Source: Taxawa tesnikishii (nom. ined.)
Taxonomy: Eukaryota > Ascomycota > Dothideomycetes > Dothideales
Reading direction: 5' to 3'
Length of the DNA stretch: 64,000 nt
Assembly: GCA_030247885.1 (NCBI GenBank)
Contig: JAPDRO010000017.1
Coordinates: 124,001 to 188,000, forward strand
This document shows, one piece after another, positions 1 to 60,444 of this stretch (positions are counted from its first letter, which is position 1; every line of letters starts with the position of its first letter). The position numbers and the translations under genes are program-made. Under the pieces are notes generated by a model. That model ran no database searches, had not been told where the DNA came from, and saw only the letters and a list, made by a program, of their open reading frames with translations.

Positions 1-1540
1 GTCCTCAGCTGCCCACTCCACGCCGTTCGCTGTTCACCACGAACCTCTTTGCTCCCCGCAGTGCTATGGGTAGGTTTCAGCATGTCTAAAACAGCGTGGC
101 TCGGAACAACGGCTGACACCAGGGAAAGAACATCTCACCACCCCGCCCGTTGACTACGAAGGAGCTACCACCCCGCCGATCCCATCTTCCTCCCCAGGCA
201 TTGACATGATGGATGTCTCACCTCTTCCCCACAAAGCACCCTGCTTCGTTGCTCGCGTCACCCTTCCATCGCCGTCCCCAGAGCCAACCCCAAGCGATGA
301 TTACATGCTTGTGCATCAGTCCGGGGGCACACTCTAGGAGTGCCAGGTCATGAGACAATGTTCCCAGTTCAACCTCCAGTGCAGCCGCAACCCAGAAGAT
401 CGTTACACAGGCCTTCGCTGTCCAGGAACAAAGCATACTCTACAACGAGCGTTCCCCAGAAAGAGAGGACACCACTTCCTACATTCAAGTTCGGCAACGG
501 CGTGTCAGGGTTGTCTTGCTCTTCGACTCCAACATTGGTGGAAGCTTTCACCGAGTCACCAATGGAGGAAGCTACCCCCACCCCTTCACCATGAACCTCA
601 TGCCTCCACCCTCCCGCCGCACTTCACTTTCGGCTCAGGGTCGCAGCAATGGGTCACCAATGGGTCAAGTCAAGAAAGCGGCCCCTCGTCCCCGCAAGCA
701 ATTCCGCAGATCCCACAGCATGTTCGAGCATCCTGGCGATGTGATGAAGCAAGACAGCCCAGACTACGAACCACCACCAAGCCTCGGATCCGTTATGGAC
801 ATTGATGAGCCTTACAAGCAGAAGCTTCCTCACTTCGTCTCTGAAAGCGAACCAGACAGCCTTCCCCGCATCCATCAAGATACCATGATCAACGTCTTGA
901 AGGGAGAGTACAATGCCCACTACGACAAGATCGTGGTCGTCGATTGCCGATTTGAGTACGAGTACAACGGTGGTCATATAGACGGCGCTGTCAACTACAA
1001 CGACAAGGAGCTCCTCGCACAGAGACTATTCGACGAGGCCTCGTCGACCCCCAACACCCTCCTCATCCTTCACTGCGAATACTCCATTCATCGTGCACCG
1101 CTGATGTATGTCCCGAACGCCGAATATTCATTGAGATCATTGCTGACAAGTACTGCAGGGCCAAGTTCGTCCGCAACAAGGACAGAGCCGTCAACGACTT
1201 CCAGTACCCCAAGCTCACCTACCCCGAGATGTACATTCTCGAAGGCGGTTACAGCAAGTTCTTCTCCAACCATAGGACCATGTGCTTCCCTCAAAACTAC
1301 GTTGAGATGGAAAACAAGGACCACGAGTACGACTGCGAGAAGGGCTTGGCCAAGGTCAAGCAACGGGTCAAGCTCAACAGGGCGCAGACCTTTGCCTTTG
1401 GCCAACAGTTTTGCCAGATGGAGGACAGCCCCACCGCCGTATCACGCCTTGGGCCGCGCAGTAACAGCATGATCGCCGCGAGTCCAGATCACAGCTTCAG
1501 TCCTCTGGGCAACTTTGCTCGACGCATGGCCTCTTACTAA
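1..1540 (+). CDS. CDC25: Cdc25-type M-phase inducer phosphatase (5' end outside window)
   Basis: Dual-specificity phosphatase that removes inhibitory phosphates from Cdk1 at G2/M. Three exons are visible: 1-69, 123-1105 and 1159-1540, with introns at 70-122 and 1106-1158 (GTATGT donor, CTGAC branch site). The N-terminal part carries the fungal regulatory motifs PTPRRSLFTTNL, SPLPHKAP and FRRSHSMFEHPGDV. The rhodanese-like catalytic domain follows, with VVDCRFEYEYNGGHIDGA and the active-site loop HCEYSIHRAP (catalytic Cys codon at 1074-1076). The second intron splits the codon just after that loop and restores LMAKFVRNKDR. Two single-base losses break the frame in the N-terminal region, one at the G5 run 323-327 and one in the C-rich stretch 575-584; the catalytic domain is clean. 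Since Cdc25 is normally essential, I read both as sequence errors. The start codon lies upstream of the window. Confidence 0.93.
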
Positions 1541-2000
1541 GCCATCATCACTTCCTGCGTTTCTCTGCGTGCATTGCATGGCGTTTCCGGCATAGAACGG
1601 GCGGTGTCTCCACCTGATTATCCTTGCATAGCGAGTCCTTCCATCTGCGGCGTTCAAGCGATCGATTTTATTCGGCGTTCGATTTCGGTTTTTATGTATC
1701 ATGGCGTCCCGGCGTGTCCGCCTCACACTCGGTTGGGATATGAGTGGGCAGCCTCATCATGGTCGGCGTCCGGTCCACAACGGTTTCATTTTGTTTAGAG
1801 CGTATACCCTTCTAGGGCTCGAGCTAACTCGCCCTCTTTCTTACTGCCTTTCCCATCGGATCTTAGCCACAGACGAATGGCTTGGGTTACTTCTTCTTTC
1901 CACCACATCTGATTTTTTTCCCTTGCAGCAAGAACAGTACCGACTTTGATGGCAACGGCGTCACGGTTTCACGATGGCAAAAGAGCAACTGCCTGTTCCA

Positions 2001-2032
2001 CTACCTACCTACCTACCTACCTATCTACCTAC
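2001..2032. repeat. CTAC tetranucleotide microsatellite
   Basis: About eight near-perfect copies of CTAC, with one TATC variant, in non-coding DNA between CDC25 and the transporter gene. Confidence 0.9.
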
Positions 2033-58105: not shown

Positions 58106-58809
58106 TCAGCACGCTGGCGCATCCCCTAAGACCTCCTTCCCTCCCTTGTTCGCGCCCTTCCTCTCCTCATCCCGCCTAATCCTCTCAAACGCGTCCAGAA
58201 ACGCATCCGGCTCTTCAGCGCCCTGTATCTCAAACCTCCCATTGATAGTAAAATTCGGCACCCCAGAGACGAACCTCCTCTGCGCATCTCCGACCTCCCT
58301 ATCCACCTCCTCCCCGCCCTTCCCGCTCTCCAACCACTCCCTCGCCTCCTCCTCCGCAATCCCGGCCTCCTCGCCGCGCCCACGAGGACCTCACGCGAGG
58401 TGATGTCCTCGTTCCTCTCGAAGTAGGACTCGAACAGCGCCCGCACGACCTTATCCTGCGTCTCGAGCCCCTTCGTCTTGCCCAGCTGGATCAACCGGTG
58501 CGAGTCGCGCGTGTTGCCCGTCTTGCCGCCGAACGCGAAATTGATGCCGAGTTGGCCGCCCAGGCGCGAGAGGTGCTGCTGCATCATGCGGGTGCGCTGG
58601 GCGCCGAATTTGGCCTCGTAGTGGGTCTGCTTGTCGACGCCGGGAGTGGGGGCGGTCGGGTTGAGGTAGAAGGGCGACCAGGAGGTGGTGAAGGTGTCCG
58701 AGGGGTGAGATTGCTGGTGCTGTTTTATGGCGAGATTGAGGCGCGCGCGCCCGACGTAGCACCAGGGACACACGGTGTCGGAGACGATTTGGATGTCGTA
58801 TTGGGTCAT
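58106..58809 (-). CDS. DsbA-like thioredoxin-fold oxidoreductase, FrnE type
   Basis: About 234 residues after correction. MTQYDIQIVSDTVCPWCYVG carries the CPWC active site after the first beta strand. The helical insert SPFYLNPTAPTPGVDK and the segment GNTRDSHRLIQLGKTKG are typical of the FrnE/2-hydroxychromene isomerase-like group, and GVPNFTINGRFEIQGAEEPD holds the cis-Pro loop (GVP). No signal peptide, so probably cytosolic. One base is missing near 58372-58381, after SREVLVGAA; restored, the frame continues EEAGIAEEEAREWLESG. The open frame extends upstream to 59079, but the Met chosen fits the start of relatives. It is divergent from TLS1. Confidence 0.9.
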
Positions 58810-59263
58810 TTTGCGTAGGGTGGTTCGGAACGCCAGGGTGGTTGGTTGTATAGGAGGGATGGTGCTGGAGAATGTGTGGAGAGATGGGAAGATGTTGTGA
58901 GAGGAGTAGTTGGAAAAGTACTTAGCTGAAGCCTTGTTGGCCTTCTGATGTCGATGTCGATGTCGCCATCGGACGTGACAGCTCTTTTCTTGATTACTAA
59001 TTGCCAATGTCCGTGTCTGCTGGTCTTTCCGCGGTTCCGAAAGGATCGCGGTTTGTGTTACTGATGGGCTGGCACGCAAATCACATGCTGAGTGTTGGCC
59101 AAACGCCCCGAGGAGAGGAGAATAGTAGAGTAGGGGAAAGTCAACACCTTGACAAGAAGAAGGCTGAGTGAACAGGCTGAAGTGCTGACGCTTGGCACAT
59201 GACGTCGCTCCCTTCTCTCATGCTGTCGACTAATACCTGCAACATCTGTACTTCCCTGCGACA
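58810..59263. promoter_or_regulatory. Divergent promoter region of the FrnE-like gene and TLS1
   Basis: 454 bases between outward-facing starts. No specific motif recognised. A hexamer CGATGT repeat lies near 58950-58968. Confidence 0.5.
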
Positions 59264-60444
59264 ATGGCAGAAGAGCCCATGTTCAGAGCGTCGAAACGGC
59301 GCAAGGTCTTGCGCAAGCGACCCGAAGACGACGACGACGACGACGACGACAACGACGACGGTGACAATAGAATCGTGACCGGCACTCCTACACCGTCAGC
59401 GCAGTCATTGCCACCAACACCCTCGCACGACGACGATGAACCAACAATAGCAAGCGCAGCTGACATTCTACGACGACGCAAACTCGCGAATGCGCGAAAG
59501 GGCGGCGTGGGGTTTTCGTCCTCCGAGTCACAGCGCCCTAGCAATGCTCCCTCAAATTCGTCAGAAACCGCGCTGGTTCCTGTGAAACCAGAACAGACGG
59601 CCGTGGATTTGACTGCGAAACGATTTACAGCGCCTACGGGCAAGGTGATGACGGAGGATAAGCACATGTGAGTGATCTTTGCATTTGCTCGAGTCAAGCT
59701 CGGTTCGGCGTCTTTCGTGCTGGAAGAACGAATCCGCGTGGCGCGTGAAGTAGAGGCGCAAAGGCTGACGGCGTAAGGATGGCCTATATAGACGCCAAAA
59801 TGTCCGGTAATCTCCGCTCAAGCAGTACACCGCAACCCGTCCAGTCCGGTCCACCAGCGTCCAGCACAGCACCCGTCTCCAAACCAGCGCATTCGGCTAC
59901 GCACGGCCAGCTGCAGGAGATCGACTTAGGTCCTTCATCCACACTACGCAACATCGCGGCCACGGAAGCCGCATACCGCCGGCTAGAATCTGGACAGCCC
60001 GCCACGGACACATCCGCCACCGCTCCGACCAGGAAACCACGTCCGCCCCGTCTAGGGCGCGATGGGAAACCCTTGCCCCCGCGACGAAACCGGGGCCCGC
60101 AGCGCACGGAAGACGACTTCGCACGTGACGCGCTCGTGGAGCAGATCATGCGCGAATCCCAACTGAACATGTACGACTCCGTGCCTGCTCGGACCAGCGT
60201 TGCTAACGGAGCGCCACCGGGAGCGGATGAGGCAGCCGATGAGCGCCTCGCAGACGAGTTTCGCCGTGAGTATCTGGCAGCCATGGAGGAGAAGAATGCG
60301 AGTAAGAAACCGCCTGGTCCGCCGGGGCTGGCGAGCAGGGAGAAGGATGGTACGCTCAAGGGACCGAAGTTGGGCGGTAGCAGGAGTCAGAGGGCAGCGA
60401 TGAGGGCGGCTGAGGAGGCGGCCGCGAAGGGGAAGAAGAGGTAA
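59264..60444 (+). CDS. TLS1: Spliceosome-associated protein Tls1 (human C9orf78/HCA59 family)
   Basis: Exons are 59264-59667 and 59778-60444; 356 residues, frame intact. MFRASKRRKVLRKRPEDDDD at the start is the family's basic N-terminus followed by an acidic run, coded by repeated GAC. TASAADILRRRKLANARKGG-like residues and LTAKRFTAPTGKVMTEDKHM follow, and the splice joins them to MAYIDAKMSGNLR, the most conserved block. The C-terminus is a charged helix with an RRE-YLAAMEEK stretch and Lys/Arg end. In fission yeast Tls1 affects splicing of certain transcripts and telomere maintenance through Brr2; a similar role is inferred here. Confidence 0.92.

What the first reader, a model, noticed from the sequence alone, without database searches (positions are those of the whole stretch)
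1..60444. Recurrent tiny base losses break about half of the genes, all in one direction
Frame breaks appear in CDC25 (twice), the FucP-like gene, the F-box gene, ZIM17, the pseudouridine enzyme, the glyoxalase-fold gene, the SR gene, COG4 (twice), the second F-box-like gene (twice), the Zn2Cys6 gene, the small membrane protein, the ammonia-lyase-like gene, the secreted protein, the CCCH gene and the FrnE-like gene. All 18 are losses, none gains. Most fall in runs of 3-5 C or G (for example 4516-4520, 18432-18435, 20226-20229, 55410-55413), and both flanks keep the expected protein. A real wave of decay would also show stops, gains and changes in conserved residues. Under-called homopolymers in a long-read assembly explain it better. 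Anyone annotating this genome automatically would get many false truncations or false short introns.
Basis: partly seen in the sequence, partly recalled or inferred. Interest (0 to 1): 0.72.

Follow-up and report, generated by a model that had tools for sequence, protein, structure and literature searches.

The report
Assembly errors mimic broken fungal genes
Many genes in this fungal genome look broken by single missing letters, but the pattern best fits a sequencing and assembly error that shortens runs of one repeated letter, so it matters as a warning for annotation and not as new biology.

Summary
I found a candidate for each of the 18 breaks: 17 are net -1, one (COG4 N-terminus) is -2 or +1. 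Thirteen gain coding score from the frame switch, but one of these (F-box) is doubtful; five rest on reading by eye. The effect is not special to this window. In the window plus 22 samples of the same 29.4 Mb assembly a coding-frame HMM called 25 losses and 2 gains (39:5 at a laxer setting), although implanted losses and gains are found equally well and a shift-free null gives 0.9 and 1.3 per 100 kb. Of 49 distinct profile joints tabulated, 5 lack exactly one base, 44 carry an intron-sized excess. G/C runs of 6 or more: 3 seen, 38.4 extrapolated, short in non-coding DNA too; the same extrapolation fits finished E. coli. Conserved housekeeping genes are hit. Unfinished homopolymer consensus explains this best. 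Against a simple version: A/T runs are hit too, and long G tracts exist. Reads, organism and platform were not available.

The parts
301..337 (+). frame break, net -1, CDC25-like gene (first)
   Evidence: stop-bounded interval, coding-score gain 5.1 (frames seen)
354..594 (+). frame break, net -1, CDC25-like gene (second)
   Evidence: stop-bounded interval, gain 5.4. The later frame change at 1106-1158 is an intron
4511..4563 (+). frame break, net -1, FucP-like transporter
   Evidence: 90% interval, gain 21.1
5715..5796 (-). claimed frame break, net -1, F-box gene: doubtful
   Evidence: gain 20.7, but the tail is antisense to a partial SR-gene copy
14310..14424 (+). frame break, net -1, ZIM17-like gene, before the zinc finger
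   Evidence: gain -1.3, read by eye; zf-DNL match
18353..18449 (+). frame break, net -1, pseudouridine-type gene, at the start of the PfkB match
   Evidence: 90% interval, gain 9.6; Indigoidine_A and PfkB matches
20087..20297 (+). frame break, net -1, glyoxalase-fold gene
   Evidence: gain 0.4, read by eye; no Pfam match for the piece
29767..29842 (-). frame break, net -1, SR gene
   Evidence: 90% interval, gain 0.4; the partial copy at 5562-5672 is longer at this run
32913..32983 (+). frame break, net -2 or +1, COG4 N-terminus
   Evidence: stop-bounded interval, gain 5.0; TC repeat seen
34016..34112 (+). frame break, net -1, COG4 middle
   Evidence: gain 30.0; COG4_m joint lacks exactly one base; a poor intron at 33961-34025 is the HMM's alternative
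35686..35713 (+). frame break, net -1, second F-box-like gene (first)
   Evidence: 90% interval, gain 16.3
36254..36263 (+). frame break, net -1, second F-box-like gene (second)
   Evidence: 10-bp stop-bounded interval, gain 9.8
37756..37787 (-). frame break, net -1, Zn2Cys6-type gene
   Evidence: 90% interval, gain 11.0
41812..41878 (+). frame break, net -1, small membrane protein (A run)
   Evidence: gain -2.1, read by eye; also called by the HMM at penalty 7
47357..47399 (+). frame break, net -1, ammonia-lyase-like (PALP) gene
   Evidence: 90% interval, gain 11.0
52346..52432 (-). frame break, net -1, secreted-protein gene
   Evidence: 90% interval, gain 12.0
55338..55467 (+). frame break, net -1, CCCH gene
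   Evidence: gain -4.9; zinc-finger spacing read by eye
58357..58386 (-). frame break, net -1, FrnE-like gene
   Evidence: 90% interval, gain 29.4; DSBA joint lacks exactly one base

Best explanation
The missing bases are consensus errors of a long-read assembly that was not fully polished. The base-calling or consensus step shortens runs of one base, and less often other short repeats, so a true run of n is written as n-1. Inside a coding exon each such error shifts the downstream frame by -1 while both halves of the protein stay recognisable. The organism's own genes are inferred to be whole. Shown here: the bias to losses, the enrichment at runs, the missing G/C runs of 6-8 in coding and non-coding DNA, the spread over the assembly. 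Inferred: that the reads hold the longer runs, and that the platform was a long-read one.
For: Losses over gains 14:0, 25:2, 39:5 at three settings with equal detection of implanted losses and gains (242 and 234 of 364 each) and a null of 0.94 and 1.31 per 100 kb. 5 of 49 distinct profile joints lack exactly one base, none gains one. Losses are enriched at G/C and A/T runs. G/C runs of 6 or more: coding 0 against 13.0 extrapolated, non-coding 3 against 25.4; E. coli 14 against 16.5. Conserved genes of CCT, Rpb2 and HSP70 type are hit. 29.4 Mb in 34 contigs. Published precedents in yeast and a filamentous fungus (passages).
Against: No reads. Not all losses touch a G/C run. Exact G/C tracts of 14 or more exist (339 overlapping matches; 25 tracts in the 100 rows listed), so there is no cap on all runs. 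Profile joints give about one break per 23 kb of matched domain (3 in 68.4 kb), well below the HMM rate of one per 3-4 kb; I cannot fully explain the difference. In the published fungal case polishing gave more insertions than deletions, and R9 reads leaned to insertions in runs.
Confidence: 0.94

Rival explanations
1. Real gene decay: the lineage is losing these genes by small deletions.
For: Breaks are present in many genes, and both HMM and profiles see them.
Against: Decay would give gains and stops as well, and would not spare flanks; gains are at noise level. Conserved housekeeping genes are hit. Missing G/C runs in non-coding DNA are not explained.
Confidence: 0.02
2. A mutator lineage: real contraction of runs after loss of mismatch repair.
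For: It would act at runs, in coding and non-coding DNA alike.
Against: MutS_V matches at 6 places and MutL-type matches at 3, so the genes are there; activity was not tested. Selection should still keep housekeeping genes whole.
Confidence: 0.02
3. Reading frames are restored after transcription, by insertional mRNA editing or by frequent ribosomal slippage.
For: Both flanks keep their protein, and single-direction shifts would suit one correcting step.
Against: It does not explain the run-length deficit in non-coding DNA. No such system in nuclear genes of fungi is known to me (recalled; the one search was seen as a listing and did not settle it).
Confidence: 0.01
4. Introns misread as breaks.
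For: Many frame changes are introns: 7 of 9 window joints carry 56 or more extra bases, and for example 1106-1158 and 14553-14655 are introns. In COG4 the HMM at penalty 9 preferred an intron at 33961-34025, and the upstream COG4_m match holds about 20 extra residues, so an intron there is not excluded.
Against: 5 of 49 joints lack exactly one base, which an intron does not give. The HMM could choose introns freely and still called 25:2.
Confidence: 0.01

Closest known systems
Nanopore-only yeast assemblies, PMC5466710 (passages read)
   Same: Deletions in excess in the consensus, often in homopolymers; many genes carry indels until short-read polishing.
   Different: Rate there is higher (17,445 deletions in 12.2 Mb after Nanopolish); reads of the R9 type leaned to insertions in runs.
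Long-read-only Drechmeria coniospora assemblies, PMC7500977 (passages read)
   Same: Filamentous fungus; homopolymer errors shift frames in many conserved genes and short reads cure them.
   Different: Polishing there gave more insertions than deletions; here gains are at noise level.
Nanopore systematic errors targeted by Homopolish, PMC8011154 (passages read)
   Same: Errors left after polishing are mainly indels in homopolymers that shift reading frames.
   Different: Tests were mostly on bacteria, with one yeast; deletions and insertions vary by polisher.

Membership tests
Residual homopolymer errors of long-read assemblies | Indels of one direction in excess | tested here: met
   25:2 and 39:5 losses to gains, detector unbiased
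Residual homopolymer errors of long-read assemblies | Errors concentrate at homopolymers | tested here: met
   G/C runs of 4 or more 4.8-fold, A/T runs of 4 or more 4.4-fold over background; placement diffuse
Residual homopolymer errors of long-read assemblies | Coding and non-coding DNA affected alike, over the whole assembly | tested here: met
   G/C runs of 6 or more 0 against 13.0 and 3 against 25.4; samples on 12 contigs
Residual homopolymer errors of long-read assemblies | Long runs shortened at all lengths | tested here: inconclusive
   tracts of 14 or more G exist; their true lengths are unknown
Residual homopolymer errors of long-read assemblies | Accurate reads show the longer run | not testable with these tools
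   no reads held
Genome decay (pseudogenes) | Gains, stops and losses together, in dispensable genes | tested here: not met
   gains at null level; CCT-, Rpb2- and HSP70-type genes hit; stops and substitutions were not counted
Mismatch-repair-deficient lineage | Loss of MutS or MutL genes | tested here: not met
   6 MutS_V places and 3 MutL-type places; activity not testable
Insertional mRNA editing or genome-wide frameshifting | Transcript or protein differs from DNA at the sites | not testable with these tools
   no transcripts or peptides held

The most novel reading that the evidence does not exclude
The shortened runs are real DNA, and this fungus restores reading frames after transcription, by adding bases to mRNA at short runs or by efficient ribosomal slippage at many genes. 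The lack of G/C runs of 6 to 8 in non-coding DNA would then need a separate, genome-wide contraction process.
Probability: 0.01. Interest if true: 0.92.

Novelty: not a real feature. Interest (0 to 1): 0.1.

Why it matters
Anyone who annotates or compares this assembly will see false truncations, false short introns and false pseudogenes in roughly a third of gene models (32 of 96), conserved genes included. The run-length test needs no reads and no relatives: observed against extrapolated G/C runs of 6 or more flagged this assembly in 284 kb. If the breaks were real, they would mean an unknown repair of reading frames in a fungus.

Tried and rejected
Rejected: that the CDC25 frame change at 1106-1158 is a break (53-base GT-AG intron); likewise ZIM17 at 14553-14655 and PALP near 48000.

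Rejected: that frame changes between Pfam pieces are breaks in general; most tabulated joints are introns.

Led nowhere: a CCT joint on C3 looked like a gain without room for an intron, but proved intron-sized (55 bases) once profile overlap was counted. A solved-structure search with the N-terminal piece of the PfkB-type gene found nothing, nor did Pfam with that piece or the glyoxalase, FucP-tail, small-membrane and CCCH pieces. No paper held all of '34 contigs', '29.4 Mb' and 'fungus'. The organism was not identified.

Mixed control: the HMM on 150 kb of E. coli K-12 called 21 losses and 11 gains at penalty 9. Read by eye against the gene tables, 30 of these 32 lie within 41 bp of an annotated gene end, one loss is in the pseudogene yhdW and one gain is inside the intact gene yedL. 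So abutting genes draw false calls that lean to losses; fungal genes seldom abut, and 35 of the 39 fungal losses have 60 bp or more of coding stretch on both sides. The 49 E. coli events at penalty 7 (28 losses, 21 gains) were not sorted.

Rows left out: three AT-rich loci of 25 samples (L002, L020, L021) from the HMM, though not. The joint table was made by hand; I left out a match nested in another (C1:573799) and a distant pair (C12:1246068 and 1246918). Joints of the two repair families were not added.
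Full report
What was given. The window is bases 124001-188000 of contig 9 of a 29,367,862-base, 34-contig assembly. Gene content and introns look like those of a filamentous fungus (my judgement); I did not identify the organism.

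The observation. The four runs with coordinates are present. I found a candidate place for each in three-frame translations and tabulated them. Seventeen of 18 are net -1. One, at the COG4 N-terminus, is net +1 or -2; it lies in a TC repeat and reads best as two lost bases. Thirteen of 18 gain 5.0 or more units of coding score from the switch of frame. One of these, the F-box break near 5745 (20.7), is doubtful: the tail beyond it is antisense to a partial copy of the SR gene (5562-5672, 84% identical over 111 columns to 29848-29741). Five (ZIM17, glyoxalase-fold, SR, small membrane protein, CCCH) gain between -4.9 and +0.4 and rest on motif reading by eye.

A natural cross-check. The partial SR copy has a longer run at the place where the SR gene is thought to have lost a base, and all three gaps of the main match are on the SR gene's side; in a second, shorter match (63 columns, 79%) all three gaps are on the copy's side. 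This is a hint, not proof.

Direction of the shifts. I trained a three-periodic fourth-order coding model, with introns and with both signs of shift allowed, on the window plus 22 ten-kb samples on 12 contigs (three AT-rich samples of 25 left out). Losses and gains were 10:0, 14:0, 25:2 and 39:5 at shift penalties 14, 11, 9 and 7. With 100 bp and a coding score of 10 or more on both sides, 22:1. Two-sided binomial P is 6e-6 for 25:2 and 1e-7 for 39:5. The detector is not biased: of 364 implanted losses 242 were called with the right sign at penalty 9, of 364 gains 234; at penalty 7, 285 and 281. In 533.7 kb of codon-shuffled coding sequence without any shift it called 0.94 losses and 1.31 gains per 100 kb at penalty 9, and 2.81 and 4.50 at penalty 7. 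So the gains seen are at noise level and the losses are about ten to twenty times noise. Corrected for sensitivity and noise this is about one loss per 3 to 4 kb of coding sequence (my arithmetic). At penalty 7, 32 of 96 gene models carry a loss: 8 of 25 in the window, 24 of 71 in the samples. A control on E. coli was mixed and is told under Tried and rejected.

Profile joints, free of my coding model. Where one Pfam profile is matched by two neighbouring pieces, the bases between the pieces, minus those the profile expects, tell an intron from a direct break. Seven families were searched in the whole assembly (CCT chaperonin, class I tRNA synthetase, adaptin, Rpb2, kinesin, cullin, HSP70). 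Of the 41 joints that I tabulated by hand, 3 lack exactly one base and 38 carry 38 or more extra bases. In the window 2 of 9 lack exactly one base (COG4_m, DSBA) and 7 carry 56 or more. The window's cullin is in both lists, so there are 49 distinct joints: 5 at -1, 44 intron-sized, none at +1. The three outside the window are in a CCT-type, an Rpb2-type and an HSP70-type gene. The COG4 case is less sure than the score suggests: at penalty 9 the HMM preferred an intron at 33961-34025 with a poor donor, at penalty 7 a loss, and the upstream match has about 20 extra residues.

A result against my rate. Three direct breaks in 68.4 kb of matched domain is about one per 23 kb, well below the HMM estimate. 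Breaks near the ends of a match are invisible to this test and short remnants are missed, but I cannot show that this covers the whole gap.

Runs. Blind placement of the 39 losses puts 18.1% of posterior mass beside G/C runs of 3 or more (background 8.7%), 9.1% at 4 or more (1.9%) and 2.6% at 5 or more (0.3%); random placement reached the observed totals in 0, 0 and 3 of 1000 trials. A/T runs of 4 or more hold 7.1% (background 1.6%). Placement is diffuse. By eye, about 10 of the 18 reader breaks touch a C or G run of 3 or more, one an A run, one a TC repeat; six are not resolved.

Run-length spectrum. In 284 kb (window plus 22 samples) G/C run counts fall smoothly to about length 5 and then almost stop. 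In coding DNA 0 runs of 6 or more are seen against 13.0 extrapolated, in non-coding DNA 3 against 25.4 (Poisson P 2e-13 for 3 against 38.4). A/T runs of 6 or more fall short less (6 against 14.4, 38 against 54.0). Second- and third-order Markov models of the first 200 kb sample give 29.1 and 23.0 against 4 seen. The same extrapolation on 150 kb of finished E. coli K-12 is accurate: 14 against 16.5 for G/C, 158 against 162.1 for A/T; no finished fungal genome was at hand as a control. Because non-coding DNA is hit alike, gene decay, editing and frameshifting do not account for it. One complication: exact G or C tracts of 14 or more exist (339 overlapping matches; the 100 rows listed form 25 tracts), so the deficit is in lengths 6 to 8 and is not a cap on all runs.

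Mismatch repair. MutS_V matches lie at six places and MutL-type matches at three, so loss of mismatch-repair genes is not indicated; activity cannot be judged.

Known kin. Passages of PMC5466710 describe nanopore-only yeast assemblies with many deletions, often in homopolymers, and few genes free of indels before polishing; they also say that R9 reads leaned to insertions in runs. Passages of PMC7500977 describe the same trouble in a filamentous fungus, cured by short reads, but with more insertions than deletions after polishing. Passages of PMC8011154 call homopolymer indels the main systematic error left after polishing. The results of searches 27, 45 and 64 beyond these papers were seen as listings only.

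Verdict. The frame breaks are in the sequence file and, with a probability of about 0.94, not in the organism. Reads were not available, so the decisive test remains open.

Noticed in passing
window 5562-5672 (+), against 29848-29741 (-): A partial, 84% identical copy of the SR gene lies antisense to the end of the F-box gene; it looks like a decayed duplicate.
   Followed up: partly
whole assembly, for example G000:C6:240981-241004 and G000:C8:170946-170970: G or C tracts of 14 to about 25 bases exist although G/C runs of 6 to 8 are almost absent in the samples.
   Followed up: no
L002, L020, L021 (C1:100001-110000, C20:50001-60000, C25:50001-60000): Three of the 20 first ten-kb samples have only 23-29% G+C against 48-56% in the others, a strongly two-part genome such as repeat-induced mutation leaves (recalled).
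   Followed up: no
window 16924-19537 (+): One gene region matches Indigoidine_A and then PfkB, which suggests a fused pseudouridine glycosidase and kinase (function recalled).
   Followed up: no
window 7886-9172 (-) and 49207-50488 (+): Two Glyco_hydro_cc (PF11790) genes lie about 40 kb apart.
   Followed up: no
window 53691-53873 (+): A short hydrophobic open frame overlaps the end of another (53357-53851) in the +1 frame; not explained.
   Followed up: no
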